A stretch of DNA of 64,000 nucleotides from positions 1 through 64,000 of the forward strand of contig JAZGTN010000316.1 of NCBI GenBank assembly GCA_037783415.1, written 5' to 3'. Source of the stretch: Leptasterias polaris. Taxonomy: Eukaryota; Echinodermata; Asteroidea; Forcipulatida; Asteriidae. Shown in pieces: positions 2,601-54,021 of the stretch. Made by a program: the position numbers and the translations under genes. The first letter of the stretch is position 1. Every line of letters begins with the position of its first letter. The notes below the pieces were generated by a model. That model did no database searches, was not told the origin of the DNA, and saw only the letters and a list, made by a program, of their open reading frames with translations.

Positions 2601-2602
2601 AT

Positions 2603-3595: not shown

Positions 3596-4291
3596 CCATA
3601 GCAAAGGCAAATAGAAGCGTGGTAATGGTGTGCCGATTCGAAAATACATAGGTTTGTCCTGTGTAGAAAAAAAAAGAATGTAAAACGAGGATCTTTGGAA
3701 AACAAGCGTTTTAAGGCTTGGGGAAGGGGGGTGGGGGTGCTGGTAGCTTTATAAATGCAGTGTGCCGTTTCGATAGAACTTGTAGAGAACTTGTTTCATA
3801 GATTCCACACACCGTACATGTTCAATGTATATGTTTCAATCTGTAAAACTCGTCTCTGGCTCCTTTGTTGAACGATTTCAATAATTGACGAGTTGGCCGA
3901 AACGAAAGTTCCATTTGGTTGTTTGTCCCTCTACTGCTAATAAAATTAGACGCCGTGAGTTGAGAGTAGATGTCTGATTGATTACATTTCCTTTCGCTTT
4001 TAGCTTATGTGAACACTAATGCGATTCACTTCAGTAGAGTGTTTTACGTTGGACGGTTGTGGATCGTTGTGCAGAGTGTGAAGCTTGTTGTTTTTAATGG
4101 TAAGTCCGCTTAAAACTCTACCATAGAACTATCTGAGAGATTGTAATTTCTTTGATCAGAGTCTCTTTCTTTCGCTTCGTCAACGAATTTTCGAAGTACA
4201 CGCTTGAATTTGAATTAGGTGACAATGGAAGGCGGTATTAATGCTTGGTAATGCCTGGGTTGGTGGCGTGCGGCCTCTGATGGGAGCGGAA
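3596..4291. other. Intergenic stretch, nothing recognised
   Basis: AT-rich sequence with a short G-rich run near 3721-3737. No gene, repeat family or RNA could be supported. Confidence 0.35.
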
Positions 4292-31200: not shown

Positions 31201-34200
31201 TTTGAAAAAAACATAAAACACATAAGGTCTCTTTTCACTGTTTTCTCGTGACCTCGATGTTAAATTGAGCTCAACCTTTCATGGGTTCGTTTGTTCATGC
31301 ATATAATGTTGAATCACACAAAATGTGGACACTGATGCAGTTACCAACAGTGTACAATACCTTTAAAGGTTTGTTCTACCTGTACACCGATGTGTGCCGA
31401 GGAAGCGTCATGCTGCATGCTGTATACGGGTTTGTTGGTGTTTGTTGTTTAGGTGGATTTCATTGCGCTTTTTATTTTCGTGTTGGCGTTTCTTTTTGGT
31501 GTGCTGGTTTCTAATGTTTTGGCCGTTGCCGTTGTCGTTGCCATAACATTTGGTGTTGTTGTTGGTGTAAGTGCTGATGTTGGTATTGTCGTAGTTGTTG
31601 GTGTTATTATTGTTGTTGTTTTGTGTGTGTTGGTGTTCGTGTAGGGTGTTGGTATTGGTATTGGTGTTGGTATTGGTTTAGGTGTTGACCTGGTTATTAA
31701 TTGCTTTGGTTTAGGTGTTTGTTGTATGTGGTGGTGGTTTTGGTGCTTGTGCAGGTGTATTTGTTGGTGTTGGTTTTATTGATAGTGTTGGTGTCGTTGT
31801 AATTATTGTAGTTGTCGTTGTTGTTGTTTGATTTTCATGTTCATTTATACTGGTGATATTCCTGATTGTTTTGTTTCCAATTGACCATAACAGAATGCAG
31901 TCAGGGTGAGTACGAATGCGCATCTGGTCTAAAATGTCTTGAGAGTCACACAGTGGTTTGCAATGTGGTTAAGGATTGTCCGTACGGGGAAGATGAACAG
32001 AATTGCGGTAAGTTGTTAAAATTTAGAGCAACCTCTCTCCACCGAAACGTGTACCTGGAAATTTGCTTGAAAATGTCAGTAAACGAGATCTTCAGCTCAA
32101 AAAAAGCTTGAGAAGGTGCCACAACAATGTCCCATGCAGTGTTGTTGTCGTGACCTGGAATTCCAAGACCGAGACCAAGACCGAGACATTGATATGCGAC
32201 GGGGAGACCAGCCCTTCCGAGGGGGAGACTTTTGCAGTCCGAGACCGAGACGAGACCCGAGACACCAAAAAGGTCTCAAGACAGAGACCAGGGCACGACT
32301 TCACAAAGTCTGTCATTAGTGCAAATCTGTTGTAGTTTCTTAGGAAATAGTGATGTCACAATACAAATCACTATGGTAATAGTGACAACTCATCTTGAGA
32401 TGAATTTTAGTGCTTTGTGAAATCGACCCCTGGTCCCCCACCTACAACACTGGTCCCCCACCTACAACACTGGTCCCATGCGTGCATGTGGTAGAGGTGT
32501 GTCAGGTGATAATCTTCAGTGCATTATGTGAAATCAAAAATATGTCAACCATTTTCAGCGGCCATCTTTGATTTTGTGTTTTAAGCATTTTGGGGATTCA
32601 AACTATTCATCTTTTTTTTTAATCATTGCAACAGTAATAATCTGGTTTTTTTTTCTACTTTTATGGCCAGGAATTACTATGAACTAAACGTTTTCCTTAC
32701 CTCTAAGCATGTTTTTGTTTTAAGGAGTATTGCCTACCTTTTTGAATATCCTATCACAAATAAAAAAACACATTTAAAGTTCTAATCAGCTACAAGTTAA
32801 ATTATTGTGCTGTAAAAAGTGTATCGATAATAATCATGAAACAATTGATAATACCATATGTTCCTTCAATTGAAATGCCAACCCATTGTGAGCATTACAC
32901 GGCTCCTTCTCAAAGTACGTCGGGTGGCCGTCATTCAACTCAATATCAAAGGCACTGGCAGTACACATTGTAAACTTAGACCCACACTTCAGGCATCATG
33001 ATTTCAAACTCTTCTCTTACAGATTATTGTGGTTCATCAAACATTTCAGTCGGAACAACTCCAGTCAGTCTGGCGTCACCAGGCTACCCAACAAAGTATC
33101 CTCCGAGGATGGATTGCCGTTGGGAGATCAGGGCTCCAGACTTGGTGTATGTGGTGGTGTCCATACAAGATTTGAATTTAGAAAATGAATATGACTATGT
33201 TTACTTTGATGGTACCCTTAGTGATGGTCACACCGCGTCATTTAAACTCACTGGAACCACACGACTGGAGCCCATAACATTTAACGCATCGAGGACACTT
33301 TATGTCCGTTTCACAAGTGATTTTACGTTGGAACGCACTGGGTTTCTTCTACAACTTCAGGGCTCCTATGGTAATGCTACCGGTTGTAATTAGTACTCAT
33401 TTAAGTTCATCTATGGAAATATATTTTAATGTTTGTGAAGTACATAAGTACAATTGTTTGATATCATCAACACTATGTTTAGCTACAAGAAACAACTTAA
33501 TATGCCTTCAAAAGTGTCTTACTAACGAGTCATCAACGCCCACTCCAACCCATAGGAAGCGAATCTTGCTTATAATACTTATCACAACTTTATATTGGGA
33601 AGAAGTTACCACAACCTGTTATTCAGTGACTTATGATCCCTAATGAACGTGCAAGGGAAAACAATCCAAGCCTGTAGTAATATAAGAAAACCTACTAAAG
33701 GCTTGATCACGTTAGGATGTATTATCCCGTTAATAGGGTTATACTGGTGTTTTTCCACCGTACAAGGCTAAGTAGCCATGAATAAACCAAACACTGCAAA
33801 TCTAGTGATTTACCGGACTGATTTTGGTATATCAGATGTACAAACACATACTTACATATTTCTGAGCTTGTTTATTCGACGGATTTTGTCATCTCGTGAA
33901 AATGGTGACGACATTTCTGTCTCTTTGATATATATACAGCTTACTGCCCCTCCGAGAGTGACTTTGACTGCAGAAACGGGATTTGTGTTACCGCAGAGGC
34001 AAGGTGTGATGGCTATCGGGACTGCCAAACCAGTCCAGAAGATCCATCTGCTGATGAAGAGGATTGTGGTCACGGCCGTTCCGCAGTATTAAAATGTGCA
34101 CGCCCTCAGTGTTCACGCTGCGTCCAGTTCATTCTGACAAGTTACGCGCGCGCGACATTTGCAAGTTTATGTTTACACCTGAAAAAGGTCACGTTTTGTG

Positions 34201-37200
34201 ATTTGCATATCACCATTTCCTTAAATTTCATTGGTCGCAGGAATGTTTTGAATAAAAATAGTGATAATTCTCATGAATATTCATCTGATTAATCCTTACT
34301 TGGATCTCCGAGGTCAATTCAGCCATGTGAGCTGCAATCCAGGGGCCACTGCGTACGGGGTGTCATGGTGTCGTCGTTTTACTATTTTGGCGTGCGAATG
34401 ACGTGCAAAAGAGTGTTATTTTATGGAAATAAGAGTTTTCATCAACAAAATCTGACCACAGATGTTTAAAAGAAGCATACTCCAAGCCAATCAGGATAAA
34501 AGAAGGTAAAAGACAGCGGGATGATTTGTGATATTAGAGATTTTGTTTGGTTATTTTCCAACGTGTGAAAAATGATCTTTCGTTTATTATGTACATTCAA
34601 TACACTATAATATACAGAGGCTACGTAGAGTTTGCATACGTTCATTTTGTACATCGTTGTGTCAGTGTCGGGATATTTTCATGACTGATTTCAAACTAGC
34701 CTAGGCCCTATGATTTAAGTTGTTAGGCCTACTGCATCTGTGTTTTCAAAACAATTTTTTACTAGGGTATATATTATAGGCCTACTTTTTTGAATGAAAA
34801 CTGGAAAAAATTTCATTCTACATGTACATACAATCCTCCGATCCATCATGCCAACCCAAATGCAAATAATAATATACTAAATCGTGATTTGATTCTGGTC
34901 CCTGGGTGTCTGGAATAACACGTTTCTTGAAGTGAACTGTTACGTCCTGTGGTGGTATGGCTTAATTAATGGACATTATGTTTTTTTATTGGGATTGCTG
35001 ATAATTAAACATTTTCTTATTTTCTCGAAATTACACAGCCACTGTCGAACTCGAACCCTGCCAGTGCCAGCTTACCAAAGCAGAGAGGACTATAAGTAGG
35101 CCTACATGTGAAGGTGAGTGACTATTCCAAGTAAAATTGTAACGCTACACTAGTCCGACTTGTATTTTCATTTTGAAGCCTTTAAACTCAGCTGTGCTAT
35201 TCATAATTTTGGAAATTAAAAGTCTTGCTGTGCATGTACCCCCCCCCCTTTGGCAAATTTGCATGCATATTATTTACACTATCTTGTCATCATGTATCAT
35301 TCAGCTGTTGAAAACAATTGTTTAAGTTTGATGTGATCATGATATGATGTATTTGCACACAAAATATTATAGCGTAGTAAATTAATACCCAACTTGAACC
35401 TTGCTTAAAAACAATATTTGTGTTATTCTTCTATTTTTGCTTTTTTTCTACATGTGATGACTTTGGCTTGTACTTCTGGAGTGGTTGACAAGTGGTGACG
35501 TCGCATTGTTGTCATGAGACGCTGTACAACACGACCTGTCCTGTTGAACTCGGTGTGTATGAGCTCGCCTCCTTGCTCATTGAGGAGGCCAAACCCAACA
35601 CCAAACCTGGACAGCTGTTCAACGGCGTGGTTCTCCAATAAGTGCATCTTTGGTGTGATGCTGGATTCAGGGAAACTCTCTCGGTAAGATGCCATGAAGA
35701 CCTTGATACACATATCTGCAACAACAAAAAAAACATCATTACTCTGGACTGGTATTAACATTGGTACTTCACAACAAAAATTAAATGGAGTTGAGTAATT
35801 ACCAATGCGGTTCAAGTCATCTGGTGATAATGCCCTCCTATGGTTTATCGCAAAGTGTGCATCGGCAAATTTTAGGAAAATATCCTCGAAAGTAGACCCC
35901 AATTTAGCTGCTTCTCTGATGAGTTCTTGCTGATGTTTCAGTGGAATGTCATCGTTGGATACACTTTGAAGGATTCTGGGGGGTCCGCTTTTGGTGGATT
36001 TTCGAGGAGATTTGATTGAGCTGTGAGCAATTTTCTGCACAAACAATGGTTGTAAAGATGAGATGTAAAAAATGGATTGTCATAATTTGTGTTAGTATAA
36101 AACAGCATCATTGAATACAAAATGTACTATTTGTAAATTTGTAAATTTTGACTTAGTAATGTTTAAATGTGTTTACGTTTGGGTGTTTGTGTTGGCATTA
36201 AGCAGAAATTATGTGTTTGATGTTCTATTTCAGAAGCTAAATCCTAACCATCAATATTTTTATTATTATGAAAATGTTTATTAAGTACATAATTTATTGA
36301 TGGCTGTGGTATGCGAATGATGTAAATTTGACTTGTACACTTGTAAAAAGTATTTAAAGAAAATAATAATTAATAACAATGCAAGTTGTTTTACAATACA
36401 TACCCGGCCTGGTGTTTTCAAGCGCACATCGTTTCCCTTGTGTGCACTAAGCTTTAACCAAGTCCAGCGATCACTGACTTCTTCAATTTCTGCTGGGATA
36501 GGTGTGCCTCTGCTGTGTTCCACTGCAACTTGCTTGAGAAGGTTTGCAGCCTTTATAATCTCATCTCTGTGTATTTTAACTGTGCTTGTCTCGGGATATG
36601 TTTGGATGGGGTTTGCTGATTTTGAACACAAGTCACAGTTACATGATGGTGTTTTATCCTTTTCTGGACAAACATGGTCAGCCATTTTGGACAGTTTACC
36701 TATTGTTCCGCATACTGTGCAAACTGTTGTCAATGTGCTAAGCTGAAGCCTCAAAATTCGGGGTGATGATGTGACGTTGTCATGATTCACACTAACTTGA
36801 CATACAGGGCAGGGAACGGTGTGACTGCCTCGAAAAACGAACCACTGCTCTAAACATGAAGAACAGTAGTTGTGTTCGCATTGAGTTTGCACAGAAGGGG
36901 AGCTCAGGATACACTGGCATATTGCACATATGAAAATTGTCTCCACTGCCTTCTCTGTGCCAAGAATGTCGAGATTTGGGGGAACTGTGTACGCAGAATC
37001 ATTAGTCGCAAAGTTAAACAGATAACTTTTCTCACAGTCCTGTTTGTTGAGGCTCGGTGGATTAATGTTCGGAAGACCTTTTCCAGTACGATTTCTCTTA
37101 ACAGGGCGACCCCCCTTAAGTACTTTTCTGTACTGCTCACATGTGGTGCATGTTCCAGATCTTGAGTGAGTCGGCCATTCGTCAGTAGTTTTTTGTGTAG

Positions 37201-40200
37201 CAGATGAATATTCAAATTCCCTAGTTTGTTGTTTACAATGTGTCAAATTACGCACACACCTCCAGCATAATTTATTCGGATGCCTTGTTGAATCATCGAG
37301 CCAGATATTTATACTGTACAGTATTTCTAATTCCTTTCTGTATTGTGCACAATCCACTGCCACATATGAATTATTTGTATTTAATTTTGTGCACACACGA
37401 CACAACTTATCAAGTGCTAATTGATGAAACTGCAATGTATTCATATCTGGAAAACTTCCTGTAAAGATGTCATCGTTGCAATAAAGTGTTTACCTTGAAA
37501 CAGTGAATCACAGTAGTATTGCAGTCTGTTTGTTCAACACATCTTTATTTGAGAGTCTGTGTTTGACGATCGCGATACGAACGTAAACAACATACTGAGT
37601 AGTAGTCATAGAGCTATGGTAGTAGTACATAGATCTTTTTACTACACTATAATCTACGTTTTGCATCCCGCGCGCTATTGACGTGTTGGCTGTGGAGGTG
37701 CGCGGTGCACGTCTGCGACTGTGTGTACATTTTAATAGGAGTTTTACGTGATTTTTTGTTCATCTCCGTGAAAAACACACTCTTAAAAATCTATTTCTTG
37801 TAAATATGCCCGCTGTCTTGTTTTATTCGTTTGGGCTTTAGGGAAAACAAGTATATTTTTTTCAAGAAATTGGCTCCACTTTATCGGGAAAACCCAGAAT
37901 TTTTATTTTGGGACATTTTAGAATCAACAGTTTCTCACTATCTTCGGGAATTCACGTCCAGACCAGGGTGGAAAAACCCTCATATTTTATATTTTTCCTC
38001 ACACATTATTACTCTCAATAAATAAAAGTGATCGATTGAAAGTGTTTATGATAAATTATGAACAAATAACTCGAAAATCAATTGGTTATGTATGGACAAT
38101 TCAATGTAATTATCGTTTTTTTATTCAACGTTAACGTTGAGCCTCCGCCATTTTGGAAACGGATTGTTGTTTCATTACTGGAGGAAACGTTTGTTCGTTG
38201 CGAAATCTTTTAATGCGCTGTGTTAATGGGCTTGATACGGCCGTGCTGCCTGCTTTCCATAGGGAAATTGGCTTTTGACAGAAAAACCCACAATTACAGT
38301 TCAGTTCTTTGTATTGGCTTTGTTTCTCCTTCTTTTCGCCTTTTTTCCTAATTTCACCTGAAATTGTTCGGCTGGTGGTGAATGTTGTCTCTTTGTTGAC
38401 ACGTTTGAAACAGTGGAGCCCCCAGAGTCCGAGTCCGAGTCCGAGTCCGAGGGTTCACTCTCTCCTCCCTCGTCCCTTGCCTTCTTGCATGTCTCCCAAT
38501 GACCATTTTTCCGCAGAAAAGGCTCCCATTGTGCAGGGGAGACTAATTCCCATTTCTTAAGCCAGGTGCCTCCATACAGCTTGCCTATACACCTTTTCAT
38601 TCGCTCGTTGATCACCACTGACCCCTCTGACGCCTTGTCCACTGGCTCTTCCACCTGCGGGAGTGTAGAGGGTTCCTCCGGCACCGGTTTCTTTAGGGTA
38701 GTTTGGGTTTGGGTTTTCTTTCTTCCTTCTTTTTTGTTCCGGGATTGCTTCGTGGGTTTAGGTTTTTCTGCTGGTTTGGGGGGTTCAGGTTGTGGTTCTG
38801 GCGTGGGGTCCGCTATATCCTCCTCTTCCTCCTTTGGGGCTGGCTCTTCGTCGGTTGTGGGGTCCTGATCCTCAATGTTGCTCTCCTCGGATGAGGATTC
38901 AGTCTCCTCGGATGAAGATTCAGACAGTCTTTGAACTCTAACCCTGTTAGCATATGATAGAGGACATGCTCGTGCAATATGGCCTTCACCTCCGCAATTT
39001 TTACATGAGATAGGTTTAGGACACTGTGCGGCCCTGTGTCCATTTTCTCCACAGTTGAAACATGTCATGGTGGGACATTCGGCGACTTTGTGGCCTGGCT
39101 GGTTACATCTACGGCAAGTTTCTACCTGCCCGTTGTACTTGACGATCAGCCGGAAGCTTCCAATCTGGATGTAGCTAGGGATTGGTTCATTGACTTCCAT
39201 CTTGACGTGTCTATTCCCATTCTCCCAGTCGGGGTACTGCTGCCAATGACCTCTTCTTACCCCGTGCACCTTGCCGTACTTGGTGAGGACCGTAGTGGTA
39301 CAGTTGCATTATTTCGGGTGGTTCAAAAGCTTTGCTGCTCTTTTTATTTGGGGGAAGATGGTCTACAGCAGCAGTTTTGTTCATCAACATATTTAGTGCT
39401 TGACATTTAAATCGAGCGCTAACAAGAGTTTGCCCAAATATGCAACTTTTAAATAATACTGTCTACGCCAGGCTTAGACTGATTCCATGTGCTTAGTCCG
39501 TCAGGCCCAATGATTTCATTTGATAAACACGCATTGACGTAAGCTTTCCAAATCTGTGTTGATGTGTCCGAGGTGATGTAATTTGTCAGCTCGCTATTGC
39601 GCTTTGATCGTCTGCTGCGTGTGTTATATATGTGTGTGCAGTTTCCCCCCCCCCCCCCCCCCCCCCACTTTGTGATGAATTTGTACAAATCGCGTATTGA
39701 CAAAGAATCTTCGTGTGACGTCACACTTTGTGGTTCGTGAATAACAGCAGATACCGGCCTTGCGCGCCTGGCAGGATCCTGCCAGATGTACTTTCGACCT
39801 TTATACACATGTATAATTATGTTTGGTAGCAGTGTCAATCTGGTGGTATGAATCATTGCATGCACGTCTGTCCAATGAAACCATTAGGTTTGTAAGACCA
39901 GTGCCTGTCCAGGCTCTACACAGACAATAATATGTCCTCATTATCATCTTCCTGCTATTTCTTTCAGGTGCTTGTGGTGGCACTAACATTCTCGTTGGAA
40001 GTGAACCAATTAACTTCACATTGCCAGGATACCCAACTAGCTACCCACCGTCTCTCGACTGCGATTGGGTGATCGTTGCTCCGTATTTTATGTCAACAGT
40101 ACACGTAGGAATAAGTGATTTTTCGACAGAAGACAGTAAAGACATAGCTACCCTTCACGGCACCAATCTCTATGGAGACATGGTGTTATTTGAGCTGACT

Positions 40201-43200
40201 GGATCCATCGATAAATTGATATCTACAACTTTCAGTTCATCGCAGGAAGTGTTCTTTATGTTTAGAAGTGATTCATCTATTAGTGGACGAGGGTTTTTAC
40301 TGGAACTTTACAGCAGCAATAGTAAGTTCTCTTGAGAATTTCTAATCTTACGACTACTGATGAATAATTGGTTTATTGGTGTTCAAATTCAAGTATACAC
40401 TATAAAGTGCCTTGGCCCTCGTGCTTAAAAAGACTTGAGAATACAGTATGACAATGATTTCAAAGGACCAGGGTTACCACTAGAGGACACAAATTCGCAT
40501 ATAACAGGTTATGTTTTTAGCTCAAAGGTGGCACAAATGGATACGTGTAAATTCCTGCTGCTCATCAACATTAAATATTATATTTGGAAATTTACGCCAT
40601 TGGCGTTTGTGAAACCCAACTAAACAACTTGTAAATATTTATTTGTTTTAACAAAACTAATTTCAATTATATAAGTCTTACACGTTTTTTTTTAATGTAC
40701 TGGTAACGCATCTTGCCCTGACCCCGATGTCTTTGATTGTGGAGACGGCTCTTGTTTGAAGCTAAGCGGAAGATGTGATGGGTTTAGAGATTGCCAAAGA
40801 AGTGGAGCAGATGAAGATGATTGTGGTAAGAACGTTTGCATTGTCCTCATTCGAGGCTACACTGGCGCAAATTCAAATCAACATCATTTCAAGGGAAAGG
40901 TCAACATTTGGTACCGCAAGGTGGCAGCAGACTAATTTATGCGGATAACGATACCAAATATACACTATCATTTGCGACGTATAAAGCAAGTTGAGTTGTT
41001 AAACTTCGGTCAATTTTCCGTTAAATCACGCCTGCCTGGTTTGTGTTTCACTCGAACGCGTTTAGTCGATTGATTCGGCAAGTATAGCGACCGACATGGC
41101 GACGACGTAGAGATAACAAAATGTATTGTTCCGAAACTCCATCTTGACAAAGTGACGTAACTTTTAGTAATAGTTGACTAAAGAAACAGTGCTCTAGAGC
41201 TTGGTTGAACTCCCGCCAAGAGAACATGCTTGTAGATTTTGCTGACAGTCAAAAGAAAACGCACTGTTTGCACTAATTACAAAAATCGTTTTCTTTTTTC
41301 ATCTCTCTGTAAATGTTGTTGTTGTTCTTGGAAGCTTGCATAAGCACAAAATCAAGACACAAAATAATGCTCTTTCTTATCGTGTTCATTCCTAGACGAA
41401 ATTACCTGCCCAGGATCTTTTCTTTGTCGGGATTCATTAGAATGTATTCGCGTGTCCTCAGTCTGTGATGGCAGAATAGATTGTCCGTATGGAGATGACG
41501 AATCACCACAAGCTTGCGGTATGTTTTTATTTATATTCAAATACGTTTTCAATTATTTACAACTACCTTTTTTCGAAAGTAGTAGTCCCGGCTGATTTCC
41601 TACCTCATGCCCAAGTAGTAGTTAATAAGCGGACAGCTCCTTTCAGAATTTAAATATAACCCGAAGTCTCCCGAATTCCGAATAATTTGCTCCGCAGCAG
41701 TAGAATAAATAGCAAGACAAGTTCTCAAAGAACAAAATATATCTAGCAGGTAGATAGTTATACACATGGTGTTACTGCAAACATACATTCAACGCCTCAA
41801 ATCCCATATGGGGGGTCTACTTTCTTTTGCTTCTTATTATTTTATTATTTGTGTTTATGCTCATTTATCAGCATCCACATGTATTTAAATGTATTTAGTT
41901 AGTAACTAATTGTTTATTTAGTTAGTTACTTATTACTTGTTTAATACTTATTTACTTACTTTTTCCCCTTTTTTGTCTTGCTCTTGCTTTGAAGCTATAC
42001 AGCTTCATTTATTCAACAACAACAACAAACACACAAACAATTATACATCATTTGCACATAATTAAGGTCCACATATAAATTATGGCAAACACAACAATTT
42101 AATAAAATAAAAACATAAACAAGCATAGGCCTATACAATTTAGCGTGACATAATCACGTGATACGAAAAACTCAAGAAAAAGATTTTAATTTCACCCAAA
42201 AAGACCAAAACTACATGAAATAGATTTAGAAATGAAAAACTACACATATTCCTAGTTCCCGTTCATACATGAAAAGGCAACTGTTTTACTTATTTATTTA
42301 TGACTTTGTTTTAGTATTATATCGTCTGTTCAGAACAAGGTCATTCATTTGTTTGCATTTTATATGGGTTCATAATGGGAGACGAAGTTCCATGACGGAA
42401 TTATTGAGTAACAGTTTTTAATTAAAAAGTCAGTACTCCGCAACTTTTTGTTTAATAAAAACAAATCCATATTCCCCAACTACAACTAGCAAAACTGTTT
42501 TATTACCCTCGGGGTTGTTTTTCACTGAAAGAAATTCCACCAAGGACCAGCTCTCCAGGTTTCCCCTAGGAATCGTAAAGCAATTACTTAGCCTTTGCCC
42601 TCATTACCACTAATAGGTGAAATGAATCATTTTGAATGTATAAACTATGAATATAGTTGAATATTGGGAAATTTCAACAGTTATTTTGCTACAATTTATT
42701 TTATTTAGTCACAAGGGTCTACATCTAATGGTTTGGGGCGATTTAAAAGTGAATACGTTCTCCCCCAAAATGTATTACACACATTAATATCAAACTGTCA
42801 CTTAAAAATGGCGTTAGTGTAACCGTGTGATTTTTTGTTAATGATGTCACGGAGTGAAGAATTGATCATTGCGAATATGAAATTGAATTTAATGACCTTA
42901 AAGTTCCGAGCAGACGATTTTTTTATCTCCTCTTCTTTCTCCCCTTCTTTCTCTTGACTGAAGTAACAGAGAACCATTGGAAGCACATATAACCCTATCA
43001 GTACCACGGGCGACAAATGGCACATATTTGGGGTCATTCTTCCCGACCAGGGCTCCATATGGCACCTTGTCAAATGTATTGTTTAACAACCAGTGGCGCT
43101 TATTGGTCCCCACCCATAATGCTTATTGAGAAAGTAACAAGGGCGCCCTCTATTGGCGAATTCGTTAATCCCATTGTTATTTATAGCGTCCCCCCGGCCG

Positions 43201-46200
43201 CGGACCTGTTGGCGCGCATTCATTCAAACGAACAAGTGGCTGCAACATTATGGACGGCGATAGAAATGCAGAAATTTTGGCCGAGATATTTGCAGACAGC
43301 GACTCGGAAGGAGGGGAGATCGACTCGGAAGGAGGGGAGATCGACTCGGAAGGGGAGATCGACTCGGAAGGGGAGATCGACACGCAGGATGGTGGTGAAT
43401 CAACCTCCAGCGAATCGGCGAGCGAGGTGGAGCAGGTAAGCACGATGTTTTTAGGGAGTAGGTCATGACCGTGCATGCAGTTAGAGGGCAGGAATAACTT
43501 GGGCATAAATTTGTCCAAAAGTACCCCTTTTTACATTGGCTTTTAATTTGATTTAGGACAATGGCTCTTAAAGGTACATAGAACAATAAAATGGCGTTTC
43601 TGCGGGCGTTCTGAATTATTAAGTTTGTCACTTAAAGTTATGATGTGTAGACTCGGGCAACAATGAATACAAAAAGACCATCAACGATGGGCCACCATTG
43701 GCGGCCATGTTGGATGTAAAGAATTATCCCATAATGGTTTGCGGAAGGGCGCCCTCTGTTGGTGCAACGCAATGAATTAACCCTCGGTTAAGATACCAGC
43801 GCTATCTAAGTGTTATTATTATTATTGGCGATAAGGACTATTACACTAAAAAGCACAAAAACAATGGGAAAGTTAATTACCACAATTTGACATGGCAACT
43901 GCATGCACACCCCTCCCCCACTTCTTTCCCCTTCCCCCACCCCTTTCCCTTCTCACCCCTTCCCCCACCCCTTTCCCTTCTCACCCCTTCCCCACCCCCT
44001 TGCCCTATATTTGTGGAACGAGAAGGTTACATAATAAAATTTTCATCAATCTGGGTCCTCAAATAACTCTGCATATAGCACACTTTACGTAAAGTGATAG
44101 ATCTACAGCGCCCTGATGCATATTGCCTCTTCCCTCTTTCCTACTGCAGGAAAACGCTAAATCTACACGGAAGAAACCAGACTTCAGATCGGGTTGGAAA
44201 GAGATCGGTCGTCTCAACAGGAAGCCGATGCAATTCACCGGAGATGCCGGCCCCACCAGTGATTTTACAGGACTTTCTGCAACACAGGTATTCCAGTTGT
44301 TCTTTTGCAGTACGGTTTGGGATATGCTTGTAGACGAAACAAACCGCTACGCAGAACAAAGTGCTTCACAAACGTCCTGGACCCCCACTCACTTAAATGA
44401 AATGATGGCATTTGTCGCACTCCTGCTTGCTATGGGTATCAACAAGTCACCTCAGTACAGCATGTACTGGTCAACATCTGAAGTTCTACTCACGCCATTG
44501 TATCCATCCATTATGTCCAGAAATAGATTTAGTTCCATTATGAGATTTTTTCACCTGTCTGACAACCAGTTGCCTCAACCAGCCTCTGGATGTGACAAGC
44601 TTAAGAAAGTTAGGCCTTTGCTGGATGTCATCCTCCCCAAATTTCGCAACCTGTATTACCCTGGACAGAACTTATCTCCTGATGAGAGTATGATCAAATT
44701 TAAGGGAAGAATCGGGTTTCTACAGTACATGCCCAGAAAACCGGTCAAATGGGGAATGAAGGCATTCTCTTTGAATGAGTCGGAGACTGGTTACACGTGC
44801 TCTTGGGTATTGTACACAGGAGCTGCTCCCAAGGAGACGAAGACTTCACAAAGGCCACCTGTAAATACCGAATCATCCCCAGCAAAATGCCATCCCTCTG
44901 ACCTAACCATCCCAGGAGAAGTCGTCCTTGAACTTGTAAATGGATTTGAACATAAAGGACATGTAATTTATTGTGATAATTACTTTAACAGGCCAGCTCT
45001 GGTATCAAAAATGGACAACCTAGGATTTGGATGTAGTGGGCCTGTGCGTTATACGGCACTGGGCATACCTCGTGCAGCACACCCAAAGACAAATGGAATG
45101 AAAAAGGGAGATGACCCCAAATTTTATGAGAAGGCTGGTCAGTTATGCATTGTTTGGCGTGATAACAAAAATGTTGTATTCCTAACAAATGTAGGCGATT
45201 GCCAAGTAATAATGAAAAAAATTCGGTGTAAGAAAAGCGAAAGTGGATTGCGTGAAATTGCTAAGCCAAAATCTATAGATTACTACAACAAATTCATGGG
45301 AGGAACAGATCTCGCTAATCAAATTTGTCAGTACTACACGCATACACACAGAAGTTTGAAATGGTGGAAACGGGTGTTTTTTTGTTTGTTGAACATATGT
45401 ATGCTCAATGCTACGGTAATTTTCAACAGCATACCAACAAATAAGCATGTCAGTAATCTTGACTTCCGTATTCAAGTTATAGACGGCTTGCTCACGGGTT
45501 GGGAGCGTTCTACAATGCTGCGTTGTAGACGATCCAATGCGAATAACCTTCCTGTTGGGATGATAGAGAAAATGCATTATCCTGGAAAAAACCCTTCCGG
45601 AAGAAAACGTGACTGCATCGTTTGTAGTAACCGTCGATTACACAAGAGAAAACAAACGAGGATGATTTGCAAACAATGTACATATCCAATGTGCGTCGTT
45701 CCTTGCTTTGAGAATTACCATACATTGCACTTGGTTTAAATTTATGGCATAAATAAATATGTAGCTCCATATTTGTAGGCATTTTTAACAATAGCCCCCA
45801 GCCCCCCCCCCCCCTGCCCCCCCTATTCAATGTTGCCGCCAAAAATGTGTTCGTGTGTCCGCAATCCAAGGCAACTTTGAAAGAGGGGGGGAGGGGGAGG
45901 GGGAGGGGGGAAGGGGGTGGTCGTTTGTCAACACTTTTTTGTGGTTCATTTGTATTTAATGTCCTTCAATAAATAGTTCAGTGACATAAAATTATGTACA
46001 TTTGGTCGTTTGTCAACACTTTTTTGTGGTTCATTTGTATTTAATGTCCTTCAATAAATAGTTCTGTGACATAAAATGATTTAGATTTGGTGGTATGCTA
46101 TAATGCTATTTGATTTACTGACACCATGGAGGATTAGACTGTATGCCTGTACAGTGCATACAATACACATGAAAAATCACTCACTGCACATTGGGGGCGC

Positions 46201-52200: not shown

Positions 52201-54021
52201 TTCAGTTTACGCTTTGCTCTGAGTCATCTTGTAAATAAAATCAACAACTTACATTATCTTTCAGTTTTTTAATCAGAGGTGGAACCACCAACGAAGGGTT
52301 TATCAATGAGGGTGCATTGAAGATCAATAATGGAGCTCTTGAAAATCTGCACAGCTTGGAAAAATTGTAAGTCTTCAGGCTGCTATACGCCGGTCTTATA
52401 CCTTTCACTCTAAACGTATCCGGTTCAAAATTTACCCTGACCCGGGCCTTGTTCGGCCTATTAAACCCATCTCTGAGTCAGTATGAACTTGAATCTATAT
52501 CAAATTGACAATGAAAAAAGAGTCAAAGTGATGCAGAATCTCAAATAAAATCCCACTTTTCAACAGCCTGACCTGAAAAGGGGTCATGCAGGCCCCCCTG
52601 GGATCCAAGTTTTAGTTTTGGTAATAAGCAAACAAAAAGAGCACGTCCTCGGATTTTCCCACTAGCTTTGCAAAACTATTTAGCAAACTCCTGGCCCGCC
52701 ATTGTATAAATTGATTTTACTTTAGCAAGAGTCCTAGCTGAGTCCCTTGAAAGGTTTTAGCCTTTGAGAAAGACTCTATAGGCTCGAAAAGTTAGGCCAT
52801 TAGCTTTGTTTTGCATTTATACCACGAAGGGTCTTTTGATTAGTAAGCAGTTTGCAACAACTTATTATATTTTCTCAATTTCATTTTAGATACGTCGACG
52901 ACTATCGTTTGTGTTGTTTATTTGATTTAAATGTACCATCTGAAGCGTTTGATTACTCTAAATGTACAACGACTGAGTTGCAACCACCACTAAACTTATG
53001 CGGCAGTCTGATGCGCAATGATGCACTACGAGCGTCCATGTGGATTCTTGGGTTGAGCGCCCTCATCGGCAACTTGATGGTAATCATCTGGAGATGGAGA
53101 CGGGGCAAAGAATTACGTGAGAATGAGACGCATTCATTCTTGGTTCTTAATTTAGCTATATCTGACTTGATGATGGGGGTGTACATGTTGATTATTGCTA
53201 TTGCTGATATCATGTTGGGTGAGAATTATTCCAGTATGGCGAAGGAATGGCGGTCTAGTTGGGTTTGCAAGATTGCCGGGGCAGTATCAGTGATGTCAAG
53301 TGAAGCATCGGTATTTTTTGTCACCGTCATCAGTCTGGACTGCTTTTTAAGTATTGTTTTCCCCTTCAGCCGGGTTAACATCAGAGGAAAGCTAACCAAA
53401 GTTATTGTGTCTGTCATGTGGTTAGTGGCTGCATGTATTAGTATCATCCCGACCATCTTCACTGGTGATACTGAATCCAATGTGTACGGGTTGTCTGATG
53501 TGTGCATTGGTCTCCCCCTGACAACTAAGGTGTCTAGTTATAAAACTGTTGAGAACTCCATCAGCAGCGCTTTTAGTGGAGGTACTATCAACATACCGGT
53601 ACCTGAGACAAGAGAACCGGCTTGGATCTACTCCATCGTTTTGTTTCTTGGCGTCAACTTGTTGTGTTTTATCGTTGTATTGAGCTGCTACATAGCAATC
53701 TTTGTGAAGGTAAAACGATCGTCTAGGCTGGTCAAGGTTACGGCTCACCGACAGAGGGAAATTAAGATGGCGGTGAAAATGGCTCTGATAGTCGGTACTG
53801 ACTTTGCATGTTGGATGCCTGTGATCATTATGGGGATTCTATCCCAGGCTGAGATTGTGGAAATTGGTCCTGATATGTATGCCTGGACTGTTGTGTTCAT
53901 CCTCCCAATAAACTCCTCCCTAAACCCATATCTCTACACATTCTACTCTAAAATAACAGCAAACAGCAGTTCAAAGAAGCCTGAACCGAAGATCGAAATG
54001 AGAAAGCAACGAGACACTTGA
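16194..54021 (+). CDS. GRL101-like CUB/LDLa/LRR G protein-coupled receptor, 21 exons, 1622 codons
   Basis: Exons inferred by me, with introns removed, sum to 4869 bases, an exact multiple of three with a final TGA. Domain order: signal peptide (residues 1-23); two CUB-like exons (to about 266); LDLa; CUB; LDLa; LDLa; CUB; LDLa; CUB; LDLa; CUB; LDLa; LDLa (to about 1075); LRR N-cap and five LRR exons (to about 1245); cysteine-bearing hinge and seven-helix domain (to 1622). This architecture belongs to LGR type C receptors, which include relaxin receptors and snail GRL101. The ligand is unknown. It should sit in the plasma membrane with the long N-terminus outside. Two LDLa exons have defective splice sites and the DRY arginine is replaced. 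Single exon entries follow. Confidence 0.85.
16264..16919 (+). other. Receptor intron 1
   Basis: It contains a purine-rich block (GGATGGGAGGACGAGGGGGAG near 16338-16380) and otherwise AT-rich sequence. No further gene is seen. Confidence 0.5.
16920..17285 (+). CDS. Receptor exon 2: divergent CUB-like module
   Basis: 122 codons in phase 1-1, acceptor TTTTACCCAG and donor GTAATC. Cysteines lie in WCSEL, HCWTA, VTCHY, DPCRP and LSCEV, with alternating hydrophobic strands. The length and neighbours fit a CUB fold, but sequence similarity is weak, so this is by analogy. Confidence 0.65.
17911..18273 (+). CDS. Receptor exon 3: CUB-like module
   Basis: 121 codons, phase 1-1. It opens with ETLCGSQYINV, the typical first-cysteine position of CUB domains, and has further cysteines in FTCVW and HGCSD. 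N-glycosylation sites include NVT, NLT and NSS. Confidence 0.7.
18380..18630 (+). repeat. (ACAA/CAAA) simple repeat in intron 3
   Basis: Imperfect CAAACAAACAAAC and CAACAACCC units. The open frames on both strands (Gln/Thr/Lys-rich or Cys/Leu/Phe-rich) are products of the repeat. Confidence 0.85.
18764..19035. mobile_element. Palindromic MITE with about 100-bp arms
   Basis: The left arm starts TACAGCAATCCTTCACCGAT and continues through GAACTCTTGGTGGCAGCAGATA to GCGCTGCCTAGCGAC. The right arm is its near-complete reverse complement, ending at 19035, with TA on both outer sides. The short loop contains TGATCAGTCG. No coding sequence. Confidence 0.8.
19197..19310 (+). CDS. Receptor exon 4: LDLa module
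   Basis: 38 codons, phase 1-1, TTTGTTTCAG acceptor, GTAAGT donor. Six cysteines and the calcium-type end (NYFDEIGCG) identify an LDL receptor class A repeat. Confidence 0.85.
19537..19983 (+). CDS. Receptor exon 5: CUB module
   Basis: 149 codons, phase 1-1. It begins DVCGNQSLFL; a second cysteine in NCIWAFHA and GTKIKLEVFDILGE follow the CUB pattern. Longer than a standard CUB domain of about 110 residues. Confidence 0.8.
20053..20155 (+). repeat. tRNA-derived SINE, copy 1
   Basis: The head folds like a tRNA: GGCTAGA pairs with TCTAGTC, and a D arm carries GCTC/GAGC. The B box is GGTTCAAATCC. The anticodon stem is poor, so this is a tRNA-derived element rather than a working tRNA. The tail is TTTGTTCAACTCCAAATCAT, shared with two other copies in the window. 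It lies in intron 5. Confidence 0.75.
20668..22153. mobile_element. hAT MITE with GACTCG repeat arrays, 8-bp duplication
   Basis: The ends are CAGTGTTGTA and, inverted, the same word. TCCGGAAC flanks both sides (20660-20667 and 22154-22161). Just inside both ends are arrays of GACTCGGACTCGAGTC-like units. It inserted into mariner-like copy B and was itself invaded by the element at 21447-21986. Confidence 0.85.
21447..21986. mobile_element. MITE with 32-bp ends starting GGGTGCGTTCGATTAG
   Basis: The ends are inverted copies of GGGTGCGTTCGATTAGCTTC continuing to CCGGGTCGACC, with one mismatch, flanked by AT on both sides. A two-base AT duplication would fit ISL2EU-type elements, but that assignment is tentative. 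It is nested in the hAT MITE. Confidence 0.75.
22594..23811. other. Intron 5 stretch without recognised gene
   Basis: AT-rich sequence. A C-rich run near 23651-23675 is the only compositional feature noted. Confidence 0.35.
23812..25595 (+). pseudogene. THAP-type gene or transposon debris in three pieces
   Basis: Piece one (23812-23916) opens MPVSCVVGGCTHNKAKNPKV, the start of a THAP C2CH DNA-binding finger, and hits a stop after 34 codons. Piece two (24639-24789) reads WAALHFNENTDMERALDRDG and FSISFPKAKQTTEGYTVKRV, ending at a good donor. Piece three (from 25318, after a CTAG acceptor) reads DFNKKILDKVLALCEAWA, then a stop, then open frame to 25595. Pieces two and three resemble a protein family repeated in marine invertebrate genomes. 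I could not link them to one intact gene. Confidence 0.45.
25596..27246. other. Intron 5 stretch, nothing recognised
   Basis: AT-rich with scattered short repeats. No coding or RNA feature supported. Confidence 0.35.
27247..27352 (-). repeat. tRNA-derived SINE, copy 2 (minus)
   Basis: The minus strand carries GGAGGTCGTTGGTTCAAATC and the tail GTTCAACCCAAAATCATT. The D-arm region is degraded. A tail-only remnant of the same family follows at about 27541-27575. Confidence 0.65.
28506..28905 (-). pseudogene. Fragment resembling the P2X7 cytoplasmic tail family, frameshifted
   Basis: On the minus strand, an acidic serine-rich stretch (GEKYLEEISVDYDAFSDISG) is followed by NGVVVIRGAEPY, then after a 1-base shift FEPLARQRAARRR, and after another shift DNEGDANKPPAANDRLKITDW. 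PYxFEP followed by RLxxTDW is the pattern of the zinc-binding P2X7-tail-like domains that are common in invertebrate repeats. The sequence ends at a possible donor (GTAATT at 28505). Two or more frameshifts make it a pseudogene. Confidence 0.5.
29341..29450 (+). repeat. tRNA-derived SINE, copy 3
   Basis: It matches copy 1 closely: GCTCAGTTGGTAGAGCGCCA, GGTTCAAATCC, and tail CACTTCAAATCATGTTA. It ends about 130 bases before receptor exon 6. Confidence 0.75.
29578..29691 (+). CDS. Receptor exon 6: LDLa module
   Basis: 38 codons, phase 1-1, donor GTATGT. CKEEEYTCLFGIEC, VCDGVRDC and FSEDELGCG give six cysteines and the acidic calcium site of an LDLa repeat. Confidence 0.85.
29916..30026 (+). 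CDS. Receptor exon 7: LDLa module
   Basis: 37 codons, phase 1-1, acceptor GTGTGGATAG, donor GTAAGG. The exon has CDSMNISCSSGECIH, ICDGHFDC and YTDEMMCG. Confidence 0.85.
30508..30963 (+). CDS. Receptor exon 8: CUB-like module
   Basis: 152 codons, phase 1-1. It opens DTCGTTEIRL and has SCIWMFKGSQG, the two cysteines expected early in a CUB domain. Only these two cysteines are present, so the second CUB disulphide is missing. Confidence 0.75.
31008..31366. mobile_element. TTAA MITE, 359 bases
   Basis: The ends are TTAAAGGCCCTGTACACTAT and, inverted, TTAAAGGTATTGTACACTGT, continuing GGTAA, with TTAA at both edges. TTAA duplication points to piggyBac-like or Kolobok-like mobilisation. It lies in receptor intron 8. 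Confidence 0.8.
31430..31830 (+). repeat. GTT/GGT-rich simple repeat
   Basis: Irregular TTGGTGTTGGTATTGGT units. Open frames over it are valine-rich artefacts. Confidence 0.8.
31894..32007 (+). CDS. Receptor exon 9: LDLa module
   Basis: 38 codons, phase 1-1, acceptor CCATAACAG, donor GTAAGT. CSQGEYECASGLKC, VCNVVKDC and YGEDEQNCG follow the LDLa pattern. Confidence 0.85.
32137..32472. mobile_element. hAT MITE with GACCGAGAC repeats, 8-bp duplication
   Basis: The ends are CAGTGTTGTTGT and, inverted, CAGTGTTGTAGGT. GTCCCATG flanks both sides (32129-32136 and 32473-32480). The left part is an array of ACCGAGACC units. The right part holds another, nested palindromic MITE (about 32289-32431) and a doubled CACTGGTCCCCCACCTACAA. 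Confidence 0.85.
32289..32431. mobile_element. Nested palindromic MITE (TTCACAAAG type)
   Basis: It begins ACGACTTCACAAAGTCTGTC and ends TTTAGTGCTTTGTGAAATCG, with GATGTCACAATACAAATCAC inside. The same family is at 48832-48976. It is wholly inside the hAT MITE. Confidence 0.6.
32481..33022 (+). other. End of receptor intron 9
   Basis: AT-rich; no feature other than the acceptor before exon 10. Confidence 0.4.
33023..33370 (+). CDS. Receptor exon 10: CUB module
   Basis: 116 codons, phase 1-1. DYCGSSNISV, SPGYPTKYPPRMDCRWEI and EYDYVYFDG are classic CUB features (first cysteine, SPGYP, tyrosine-aspartate-valine strand). This is the clearest CUB domain in the protein. Confidence 0.9.
33940..34068 (+). 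CDS. Receptor exon 11: LDLa module with abnormal donor
   Basis: 43 codons in phase 1-1, with YCPSESDFDCRNGIC, RCDGYRDC and SADEEDCG. The acceptor is good (ATATATACAG), but the expected donor reads GTCACG instead of GTAAGT-like. Read-through instead would meet a stop in the intron. The exon is dispensable for frame, so it may be skipped. Confidence 0.75.
34069..35422 (+). other. Receptor intron 11, left part
   Basis: No gene or element with clear ends is seen. A poly-C run is at 35239-35248. Confidence 0.35.
35423..37444 (-). CDS. Three-exon gene with RAG1-like N-terminal zinc domains, core transposase missing
   Basis: Minus-strand exons 37444-36404, 36034-35803 and 35715-35423 join through GT/AG sites in phases 0 and 1 to an uninterrupted 521-codon frame. 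Residues 15-63 hold a CxxC...CxxC pair (LCRVC, LCWRC), like a ZAD-type finger. Residues 173-215 are a C3HC4 RING (C173, C176, C189, H191, C194, C197, C212, C215), and further CxxC pairs follow to about 273, ending the exon at RLKTPGR. The last exon has SSITPKMHLLENHAVEQLSR and NEQGGELIHTEFNR. The order of zinc domains matches the RAG1 N-terminus and the N-RAG-TP mobile elements of marine invertebrates, as I remember them. The long central catalytic part expected in those elements is absent. It lies antisense in receptor intron 11. Either a deleted element or a captured gene. Confidence 0.65.
38084..38300. other. Spacer before the ORF1-like frame
   Basis: No reverse transcriptase is visible downstream of the ORF1-like frame on the minus strand. 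Confidence 0.35.
38301..39269 (-). pseudogene. Zinc-knuckle ORF1/Gag-like protein, 5' truncated
   Basis: A 322-codon open frame has three CCHC knuckles in a row: CRRCNQPGHKVAEC, CFNCGENGHRAAQC and CKNCGGEGHIARAC. A proline/glutamate-rich acidic linker follows, then WLKKWELVSPAQWEPFLRKN and a DSDSDSDS run before a basic C-terminus (KKAKRRRNK). Such proteins are the nucleic-acid-binding ORF1 of non-LTR retrotransposons. The frame has no good ATG: homologous-looking sequence (TVLTKYGKVHGVRRGHW) continues upstream to a stop at about 39318. No reverse transcriptase accompanies it. Confidence 0.65.
39270..39967 (+). other. Receptor intron 11, right part
   Basis: Contains a poly-C run (39643-39666). 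Otherwise nothing recognised up to the acceptor TTTCTTTCAG of exon 12. Confidence 0.4.
39968..40321 (+). CDS. Receptor exon 12: CUB module
   Basis: 118 codons, phase 1-1, donor GTAAGT. GACGGTNILV, LPGYPTSYPPSLDCDWVI and the RGFLLEL end show a standard CUB domain, close in style to exon 10. Confidence 0.9.
40709..40825 (+). CDS. Receptor exon 13: LDLa module lacking an AG acceptor
   Basis: 39 codons reading SCPDPDVFDCGDGSC, RCDGFRDC and GADEDDCG, with donor GTAAGA. Where the acceptor should be, the sequence reads TTTTTTTAATGTACTGGTAACG, and no AG occurs near the start. A single A lost or changed before the final G would explain it. The exon is phase 1-1 and could be skipped without a frameshift. 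Confidence 0.65.
41396..41518 (+). CDS. Receptor exon 14: LDLa module
   Basis: 41 codons, phase 1-1, acceptor TTCATTCCTAG, donor GTATGT. CPGSFLCRDSLEC, VCDGRIDC and GDDESPQACG fit LDLa, with three extra residues near the calcium site. Confidence 0.85.
41519..42988 (+). other. Receptor intron 14, left part
   Basis: AT-rich. A stretch of TTAGTTAGTAACTAATTG-like words near 41895-41940 is the only local pattern. Confidence 0.35.
43250..45739 (+). CDS. piggyBac-like transposase, two exons, 591 residues
   Basis: Exon 1 (43250-43435) encodes MDGDRNAEILAEIFADSDSE and an acidic array of DSEGGEI/DSEGEI repeats. A GTAAGC donor joins in phase 0 to exon 2 (44150-45739) after CTACTGCAG. The three catalytic aspartates fall in LSPDESMIKFKGR (D240), VIYCDNYF (D338) and MGGTDLANQ (D449), spaced as in known piggyBac enzymes, which cut and paste DNA at TTAA. 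The C-terminus ends in a cysteine-rich zinc finger (CIVCSNRR, CKQCTYPMCVVPC). No frameshift or stop is present, so it may be recently active. Confidence 0.9.
45919..46088 (+). repeat. 85-bp tandem duplication with AATAAA in each unit
   Basis: TCGTTTGTCAACACTTTTTT to GACATAAAATNATNTANATT occurs twice with a period of 85 bases, just after the transposase stop. Each unit has TTCAATAAATAG, so the 3' end signal is doubled. It is preceded by C-rich and G-rich runs (45800-45915). Confidence 0.85.
46312..46614 (+). other. Receptor intron 14, right part
   Basis: AT-rich, ending at a weak acceptor (ATTATGAAAAAG) before exon 15. Confidence 0.4.
46615..46735 (+). CDS. Receptor exon 15: LRR N-terminal cap
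   Basis: ADRCPAMCSCK with a later cysteine (VVQCNL) is an LRRNT cap, ending KTTDL at a GTAAGT donor. The exon switches phase from 1 to 2, marking the border between the cassette region and the LRR region. Confidence 0.85.
46971..47042 (+). CDS. Receptor exon 16: LRR
   Basis: 72 bases, one 24-residue leucine-rich repeat (KLTNENITRLNTGIFKHFTY), phase 2-2, acceptor TTTCCTGCAG, donor GTAAGT. Confidence 0.85.
47252..47690. mobile_element. PIF/Harbinger-type MITE with TTA duplication
   Basis: The ends GAGCAAGTTCGATCA and, inverted, GAAGAAGTTCGATCA are flanked by TTA on both sides (47249-47251, 47691-47693). Inside, MAESTQKK ends at a GTGAGT donor (about 47459-47487), which may be a leftover first exon of a parent element. 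It lies in receptor intron 16. Confidence 0.75.
47891..48009. mobile_element. Small hAT MITE with GGTCTC repeats, 8-bp duplication
   Basis: 119 bases from CAGTGTTGGAGGTCTC to GACTCCAACACTG, flanked by GTAATCAT on both sides (47883-47890, 48010-48017). Almost the entire body is GGTCTC units. Confidence 0.85.
48580..48651 (+). CDS. Receptor exon 17: LRR
   Basis: 72 bases, phase 2-2, acceptor TCCAACTAG, donor GTAAGT; VLTSNSIKYWPDGTFSGLYN is a regular LRR. Confidence 0.85.
48832..48976. mobile_element. Palindromic MITE (TTCACAAAG type)
   Basis: The ends GGGGCCGTTTTCACAAAGAG and GTGCTTTGTGAAATCGAGC are imperfect inverted copies. The inner arms GATCTTAAGT and TCTTAAGACGAATC also pair. It lies in receptor intron 17 and is related to 32289-32431. 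Confidence 0.65.
49380..50150. repeat. Old repeat ending in a hairpin, second copy
   Basis: It shares GCACTTCCGGTTTC...GGAAGTAGAGGTCACGCACA and GATTTGATATRGATTTTCAA with 12960-13400. It ends with ACAAGAGCTGTTTCGCTGCA and the hairpin partner AGCGAAACATCT (50121-50149). Class unknown. Confidence 0.6.
50435..50506 (+). CDS. Receptor exon 18: LRR
   Basis: 72 bases, phase 2-2, donor GTAAGC; RDISRNPISGFSRDFFEDLV is a regular LRR. Confidence 0.85.
51424..51495 (+). CDS. Receptor exon 19: LRR
   Basis: 72 bases, phase 2-2, acceptor TCTCTTCAG, donor GTAAGT; VIDVPLLSIQNGAFNSLSNL is a regular LRR. Confidence 0.85.
51815..52110. repeat. TGTC and TTTG simple repeats in intron 19
   Basis: GTCTGTCTGTCGGGCTGTCG units pass into TTTGTTTGTTTG. 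Open frames over it are artefacts. It resembles a reversed version of the simple repeat at 18380-18630. Confidence 0.8.
52265..52366 (+). CDS. Receptor exon 20: extended LRR
   Basis: 102 bases, phase 2-2. It reads FLIRGGTTNEGFINEGALKI and then NNGALENLHSLEKL, ten residues longer than the other LRR exons. The extra residues precede the NNGALENL block, so this last repeat is irregular. Confidence 0.8.
52890..54021 (+). CDS. Receptor exon 21: hinge and seven-helix domain
   Basis: YVDDYRLCCLFDLN, CTTTELQ and NLCGSLMRNDALRASMWILG form the cysteine hinge seen in LGR receptors just before helix 1. Rhodopsin-class marks follow: IGNLMV (helix 1), NLAISD (helix 2), a cysteine in WVCKI (helix 3), FACWMPV (helix 6) and SLNPYLYTFYS (helix 7). 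At the end of helix 3 the sequence is ISLDCFLSIVFPF, so the usual DRY arginine is cysteine. The C-tail is short and basic. The whole seven-helix domain is a single exon, as in many LGR genes. Confidence 0.9.

What the first reader, a model, noticed from the sequence alone, without database searches (positions are those of the whole stretch)
35423..37444. RAG1 N-terminus-like gene with an open spliced frame but no transposase core
Three minus-strand exons join in phase to 521 codons. The front has the paired-cysteine finger, C3HC4 RING and further zinc pairs in RAG1 order. The end has the NEQGGELIHTEFN block known to me from N-RAG-TP-like elements. The central catalytic part is absent, yet the frame and both splice joins are clean, which is more than expected for random decay. 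It could be a captured zinc-binding/ubiquitin-ligase-like protein or an internally deleted element using a partner's enzyme. It bears on how RAG1 acquired its N-terminus.
Basis: partly seen in the sequence, partly recalled or inferred. Interest (0 to 1): 0.85.

Follow-up and report, generated by a model that had tools for sequence, protein, structure and literature searches.

The report
Shrunken jumping gene related to RAG1
The "RAG1 front end without a core" is not an independent gene but a shortened, very recently multiplied copy of a jumping gene whose complete form, a RAG1-like transposase, sits elsewhere in the same genome; this is an ordinary fate for such elements, though the complete form is a useful living relative of RAG1.

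Summary
The three-exon, 521-codon frame is real. Its front is RAG1-like: a profile of the first 123 residues finds RAG1 first (E 3.8e-7). But it belongs to a 4,175-bp transposon, window 34071-38245, with 9-bp CACGGCCGT inverted ends and 4-bp target duplications in 12 of 15 copies checked. Of 66 end-paired copies in the genome, 56 are this short form (4,155-4,183 bp) and 6 are 7.0 kb. The 7,028-bp copy L053 can be read as one 981-residue, 10-exon transposase with D, D, C(2)C, LH, H(4)H and E motifs. The window protein is identical to it, minus 453 and 7 residues. So the core was deleted, and the join happens to be in frame. A shared frameshift occurs in 32 of the 56 short copies, so the open frame is not needed for spread. 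The element has hallmarks of Chapaev transposons, some already known to carry the RAG1-like N-terminus plus RING (PMC4411706, passages). Verdict: a non-autonomous internal-deletion derivative; a KP-like repressor role is not excluded.

The parts
34071..38245 (-). whole transposon copy (4,175 bp), gene on minus strand
   Evidence: shared sequence with 12 copies fetched at 10 kb begins at 34071 (34067 in one) and ends at 38245
38237..38245 (-). 5' terminal inverted repeat CACGGCCGT
   Evidence: identical in window, L009-L020, L053, L054; 67 genome places for the 33-nt 5' end at up to 3 mismatches, 63 of them exact
34071..34079 (+). 3' terminal inverted repeat CACGGCCGT
   Evidence: 67 genome places for the 34-nt 3' end at up to 3 mismatches, 66 of them exact
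36404..37444 (-). exon 1: RAG1-like N-terminal cysteine region, RING, zinc finger (347 aa)
   Evidence: same exon in full-length L053
35803..36034 (-). exon 2: fusion of the front of full-length exon 2 with the back of full-length exon 9 (exon numbers of the L053 reading)
35423..35715 (-). exon 3: C-terminal end of the transposase, with H(4)H (HLLENH) and NEQGGE
35977..35984 (-). junction of the 2.81-kb internal deletion (8 bp ACCCC[C/G]CA nearly shared by both sides)
35521..35522 (-). site of a second, 21-bp in-frame deletion between short TACAG repeats
   Evidence: present in every fetched short-form locus that holds this exon (L001-L020, L051, L052, window), absent from L033-L040, L053, L054
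37128..37128 (-). site of a 1-bp insertion (frameshift at codon about 108) carried by 32 of 56 short copies but not by the window copy

Best explanation
The feature is a non-autonomous, internally deleted copy of a Chapaev-type DNA transposon of a sea-star-like genome. SHOWN: it has the same ends as 7.0-kb copies in the same genome. Two of those were read whole; L053 can be read as a 10-exon frame for a 981-residue transposase made of a RAG1-like N-terminal zinc region, RING and zinc finger, and a DDE-motif core. The window gene is that gene minus about 2.81 kb (453 residues, including both presumed catalytic aspartates and the C(2)C and LH motifs) and minus 21 bp. The join fell in frame inside two former exons, so a spliced 521-codon frame survives. 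The short form makes up 56 of 66 end-paired copies; more than half of those carry a frameshift in exon 1. INFERRED: the splicing of L053 (no transcripts seen); that transposase made by full-length copies recognises the shared ends and moves the short copies by cut-and-paste, leaving 4-bp duplications; that the open frame persists because the burst is recent, not because the product is needed in cis. Whether the 521-residue product is made, or interferes with the transposase, is unknown.
For: Element limits, ends and target duplications (4-bp duplication in 12 of 15 copies, 10 of 13 short and 2 of 2 full-length). End pairing (nearest fitting opposite end within 12 kb): 66 pairs, 56 of 4,155-4,183 bp and 6 of 7,015-7,038 bp, one end of each kind unpaired. 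Window element aligns to L053/L054 as two blocks at 98.6-99.4%. L053: 981-residue frame, nine GT-AG joins, all six motifs. Window protein identical to it at 521 of 521 residues. Frameshift string in 33 places: 32 of the 56 short copies and the 5,574-bp copy, none of the 6 full-length copies; intact string in the other 24 of the 56 and in 5 of the 6 (lists compared by eye). The genome search with exon 1 agrees: shifted copies match in two pieces with stops, the 24 others match uninterrupted. Other internal deletions with other breakpoints: C26 4,336 bp and C312 5,022 bp. Asterias amurensis P0090 (989 aa) is 47% identical over 968 aligned residues, so the fused form exists elsewhere. Diverged exon-1 copies in the same genome (37-56% identity, 16 places) include several with C-terminal exons downstream on the same strand.
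Against: No transposition assay and no transcripts. The window copy, L016 and L019 lack target duplications. L054 has a private 21-bp deletion of conserved residues and the C58:1768468-1775503 copy matches exon 1 only in two pieces, one with a stop, so not all 7-kb copies can be active. Copy counts may include assembly duplicates; for instance two C113 copies 6.8 kb apart share the same altered 5' end.
Confidence: 0.94

Rival explanations
1. The 521-residue product is a working trans-acting inhibitor of the full-length transposase, like the KP and 66-kDa products of the P element: it keeps the N-terminal zinc and RING part (a dimerisation domain in RAG1) and the C-terminal end but no catalytic aspartates, and could form dead heteromers or occupy transposon ends. 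This adds to the best explanation rather than replacing it.
For: 24 of 56 short copies carry the intact string, and 7 of the 13 short copies read in full encode the identical 521 residues. Truncated P-element products repress (PMC7776569 and PMC12393704, passages). The RING region of RAG1 is titled a dimerisation domain (1rmd).
Against: 32 of 56 short copies cannot make it; no expression data; it lacks the span that in RAG1 holds most of the DNA-contacting core (mapping recalled, not computed for this protein); copies are too young for selection to show.
Confidence: 0.12
2. A host gene: a captured zinc-binding or ubiquitin-ligase-like protein, or a domesticated RAG1 N-terminus, under selection in this lineage.
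For: Open spliced frame with clean joins; with the single protein, generic RING E3 ligases are the best PDB matches.
Against: Dozens of near-identical copies with transposon ends and target duplications; residue-by-residue identity with the transposase; frameshift in most short copies; none of 15 database hits covers more than 66% of it.
Confidence: 0.02
3. The short form is the ancestral state: a stand-alone N-RAG-TP-like element to which a transposase core was later added.
For: N-RAG-TP of Aplysia is described as composed entirely of RAG1 N-terminal-like sequence (PMC8355894, passage).
Against: The C-terminal transposase end is still present. The junction lies inside two exons of the full gene. 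The fetched short copies share a 21-bp deletion that the fetched full-length copies and relatives lack. Fused proteins occur in Asterias, Patiria, Hydra, a sponge and others.
Confidence: 0.02

Closest known systems
Chapaev DNA transposons with Chapa plus RING domains (Kapitonov and Koonin, PMC4411706, passages)
   Same: CAC...GTG ends, 4-bp target duplication, RAG1-like N-terminal zinc region followed by RING, transposase with C(2)C, LH and H(4)H (motif list from PMC4079192, passage)
   Different: window copy lacks most of the transposase; placement against Repbase Chapaev sequences could not be computed here
Asterias amurensis uncharacterised protein P0090 (989 aa)
   Same: same full-length architecture as L053, 47% identity over 968 aligned residues
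   Different: not truncated; its DNA and ends not seen
Internally deleted P elements (KP) and Chapaev non-autonomous families derived from Garfield and Conan (PMC7776569, PMC12393704, PMC4079192, passages)
   Same: internal deletion of an autonomous parent with ends kept; recent burst in GarfieldN1; KP keeps a short frame
   Different: P is another transposase family; repressor activity untested here; the window form is long and spliced
N-RAG-TP of Aplysia
   Same: RAG1 N-terminal-like sequence in a transposon (PMC8355894, passage)
   Different: original paper not held; no direct comparison made
RAG1/RAG2, ProtoRAG/RAGL and Transib
   Different: 4-bp not 5-bp duplications, no second long frame in L053, 14% identity to RAG1 in the core

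Membership tests
Chapaev superfamily | 5'-CAC...GTG-3' termini | tested here: met
   CACGGCCGT inverted ends in the window copy and the 14 other copies fetched whole; 4 of 67 genome 5' ends and 1 of 67 3' ends deviate
Chapaev superfamily | 3- to 4-bp target site duplication | tested here: met
   4 bp in 12 of 15 copies; the window copy itself has none
Chapaev superfamily | DDE transposase with C(2)C, LH and H(4)H motifs | tested here: met
   present in full-length L053: GGDKGG, FGDYELL, CCLYC, LHISLG, HLLENH, NEQGGE, with counterparts in relatives; assignment as catalytic is by resemblance. The window protein keeps only HLLENH and NEQGGE
Chapaev superfamily | Chapa domain followed by RING (two subgroups) | tested here: inconclusive
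   RAG1-type N-terminal region followed by RING; the published Chapa alignment was not seen
Chapaev superfamily | phylogenetic grouping with Repbase Chapaev transposases | not testable with these tools
   Repbase not held
Non-autonomous internal-deletion derivative | ends identical to a full-length parent, internal part missing | tested here: met
Non-autonomous internal-deletion derivative | moved in trans by the parent's transposase | not testable with these tools
   inferred from shared ends and from spread of frameshifted copies
RAG-like (RAGL/ProtoRAG) transposon | RAG1L and RAG2L gene pair | tested here: inconclusive
   in L053 the frames of 100 or more codons other than transposase exons are 101-138 codons long; short exons of a second gene are not excluded and no kelch profile was run
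RAG-like (RAGL/ProtoRAG) transposon | 5-bp target site duplication | tested here: not met
   4 bp; no copy of 15 matches at 5 bp
N-RAG-TP | element composed entirely of RAG1 N-terminal-like sequence | tested here: not met
   the transposase C-terminus is present
RAG1 N-terminal region | RAG1-type cysteine region, RING and zinc finger in that order | tested here: met
   profile positions 5-105; RING and following finger aligned to RAG1, though other RING proteins score as high; Pfam RAG1_imp_bd at E up to 0.1 in 7 of 11 aligned members but not in the window protein
KP-like repressor | truncated product represses transposition | not testable with these tools
   no assay or expression data

The most novel reading that the evidence does not exclude
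The short element is a selfish or host-tolerated brake: its spliced 521-residue product, a RAG1-type zinc/RING dimerisation module joined to the transposase tail, is expressed and poisons the full-length RAG1-like transposase. To my knowledge (recall) it would be the first repressor of this kind in the RAG1/Transib/Chapaev clan, and it would show what the RAG1-type N-terminus does in a living transposon.
Probability: 0.1. Interest if true: 0.6.

Novelty: new member of a known kind. Interest (0 to 1): 0.38.

Why it matters
It removes a tempting 'missing step' in RAG1 evolution: the core-less gene is a recent deletion product. In exchange it shows, in one genome, a very young family of transposons with a RAG1-type N-terminus plus RING and, in a modelled relative, a RAG1-fold core. 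The two full-length copies read whole are 99.2% identical, so what the RAG1 N-terminus does in transposition becomes a testable question.

Tried and rejected

Papers. Passages only: PMC8355894, PMC4411706, PMC7204232, PMC12730594, PMC4079192, PMC9435367, PMC12393704, PMC7776569. Other papers were seen only in search listings with the start of the abstract. The original N-RAG-TP paper was looked up by a DOI from recall and is not held. 'piggyBac' for the DDE_Tnp_1_7 frame and the mapping of RAG1 core domains are recalled.
Full report
OBSERVATION. On the minus strand, exon 1 (37444-36404), exon 2 (36034-35803) and exon 3 (35715-35423) join with GT-AG sites in phase to 521 codons. The only Pfam models above their curated cut-off are RING models at residues 173-215. 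Against the PDB, the single protein matches generic RING ligases best (RAD18, E 6.8e-6) and RAG1 weakly (1rmd, E 0.031). A profile of the N-terminal piece of the window protein and five relatives (123 positions) finds RAG1 as its top PDB match (21wb_A, E 3.8e-7 for the chain, 2.3e-5 for the best stretch; other RAG1 chains 1.5e-5; next unrelated chain 0.33). A profile of the whole exon 1 aligns the RING and following finger to RAG1 chains too, though generic RING ligases score as well or better there. Pfam RAG1_imp_bd is matched by 7 of 11 aligned members at E up to 0.1, not by the window protein itself.

IT IS PART OF A TRANSPOSON. The genome search with 1,001 bp of the gene gave 40 scored matches, all 100% identical (72 candidates in the first look, so a lower bound). 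Twelve copies fetched with 10 kb each agree with the window from 34071 (34067 in L016) to 38245; beyond that only one other match over 150 bp, elsewhere in the window, was listed (L019). At both limits stands CACGGCCGT in inverted orientation. Of 15 copies (window, L009-L020, and full-length L053, L054), 12 have exact 4-bp duplications at the ends and none a 5-bp one; the window copy, L016 and L019 have none. L009 and L018 lie in two members of one host repeat at different points, so that each shows the other's site without the element (read by eye).

THE COMPLETE FORM. The 33-nt 5' end and 34-nt 3' end each occur at 67 places at up to 3 mismatches. Joining each to the nearest fitting opposite end within 12 kb makes 66 pairs, with one end of each kind unpaired: 56 pairs span 4,155-4,183 bp, 6 span 7,015-7,038 bp, and one each spans 1,556, 4,336, 5,022 and 5,574 bp. 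The window element aligns to them as two blocks, element bases 1-2269 and 2262-4175 (98.6-99.4% identity), i.e. with about 2.81 kb missing. The junction lies at an imperfect 8-bp match, and a second 21-bp loss lies between short repeats in the last exon. L053 can be read as ten exons with nine GT-AG introns and 981 residues without a stop, carrying GGDKGG (489), FGDYELL (559), CCLYC (579), LHISLG (650), HLLENH (902) and NEQGGE (923) (joins chosen by frame, site score and the relatives, not from transcripts). L054 reads similarly (974 residues) but lacks seven conserved residues through a private 21-bp deletion; the other five long copies keep them. The window protein equals the L053 protein at all 521 residues; the 460 missing residues fall into gaps of 453 and 7. 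In L053 the frames of 100 or more codons other than transposase exons are 101-138 codons long, so there is no sign of a second gene, though no kelch profile was run.

THE FUSED FORM IS NORMAL. Asterias amurensis has a 989-residue protein, 47% identical over 968 aligned residues (P0090). A search with an Asterias core protein listed 79 proteins, the query included; those named are from sea stars, a brittle star, urchins, a sea cucumber, a crinoid, lancelet, hemichordate, Hydra and other cnidarians, a snail and sponge. Nine of the 79 carry a RING or RAG1_imp_bd model together with DUF1280 in one chain (P0028, P0046, P0048, P0051, P0059, P0064, P0070, P0072, P0087). In the same genome, exon 1 also occurs at 16 further places at 37-56% identity, several with C-terminal exons 3-5 kb downstream on the same strand (for example C58:2352795 with C58:2357740, and C116:1210862 with C116:1215119). 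By contrast, in none of the 15 relatives of the 521-residue protein does the best alignment cover both of its parts: ten cover 54-66% and five 28-31% of it.

WHY THE FRAME IS OPEN. The 13 short copies differ by 0.0004 substitutions per site on average, 0.0012 at most. Seven of these 13 encode the identical 521 residues; six share a 1-bp insertion that shifts the frame near codon 108. Genome-wide, the shifted string occurs at 33 places and the intact string at 33. Of the 56 short copies, 32 are shifted and 24 have the intact string; of the six long copies none is shifted and five have the intact string (the two lists compared by eye). The exon-1 search agrees. The insertion lies in a run of A, where sequencing errors occur, but in the 13 aligned copies every shifted copy also lacks a TA pair elsewhere (as do the unshifted L010 and L015), so it is a lineage, not noise. 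Shifted copies are at least as numerous as intact ones, so the product is not needed in cis. Internal deletions with other breakpoints in C26 and C312 show that such losses arise repeatedly.

MECHANISM. Inferred: full-length transposase acts on the shared ends, cutting and pasting short and long copies alike; short copies multiply faster or simply drifted up in a recent burst. This is the usual history of internally deleted elements (PMC4079192 and PMC12393704, passages). A repressor role like KP of the P element (PMC7776569, passage) is possible and untested.

KNOWN KIND. CAC/GTG ends, 3-4-bp duplications and the C(2)C, LH, H(4)H motifs are given as hallmarks of Chapaev (PMC4079192, passages), and two Chapaev subgroups carry the Chapa domain, a RAG1 N-terminal part, followed by RING (PMC4411706, passages). 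I therefore call it Chapaev-type. A tree against Repbase sequences was not possible. In the listings and passages seen I saw no description of this family, but most subscription papers and Repbase reports are not held.

HOST. Within the window the element lies opposite to, and between, CUB and LDL-receptor-type exons of what is probably one host gene.

Noticed in passing
window 32980-34070 and 39931-40335, +: CUB, LDL-receptor-a (E 7.5e-4, below Pfam's cut-off) and CUB stretches, probably exons of one host gene on the other strand; the element begins directly after ...GATTGTGGT at the end of the LDLa stretch, close to where a splice donor would be expected. A 7tm_1 frame lies further on at 52840-54021.
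   Followed up: partly
window 38301-39308, -: 335-aa frame with three CCHC zinc knuckles, ending 55 bp from the element; may be a retroelement remnant.
   Followed up: no
window 44117-45739, +: 540-aa open frame with DDE_Tnp_1_7 (E 3.7e-83) and a C-terminal zinc finger: a piggyBac-type transposase by recall.
   Followed up: no
window 2672-3244, +: open frame with a histone-fold fragment (PF00125, E 9.1e-9), followed in the same frame by repetitive sequence.
   Followed up: no
window 60035-61517, -: three overlapping frames (192, 201, 155 aa) without a Pfam match at E up to 0.01; may be one broken coding region, not tested.
   Followed up: no
G000 C58, C46, C116, C136, C201, C177, C153, C36: 16 further exon-1 copies of related transposons at 37-56% identity, several with downstream core exons.
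   Followed up: partly
L013 and L016: the left flank of the L013 copy is the reverse complement of the right flank of the L016 copy, and L016 lacks a target duplication; suggests recombination between copies (read by eye).
   Followed up: no
G000:C9:14712760-14718333: a frameshifted short-form copy with a span of 5,574 bp, so by its length with about 1.4 kb of later insertion.
   Followed up: no
G000:C102:3868219-3869774: a 1,556-bp copy with both ends, a possible miniature derivative; its inside was not seen.
   Followed up: no
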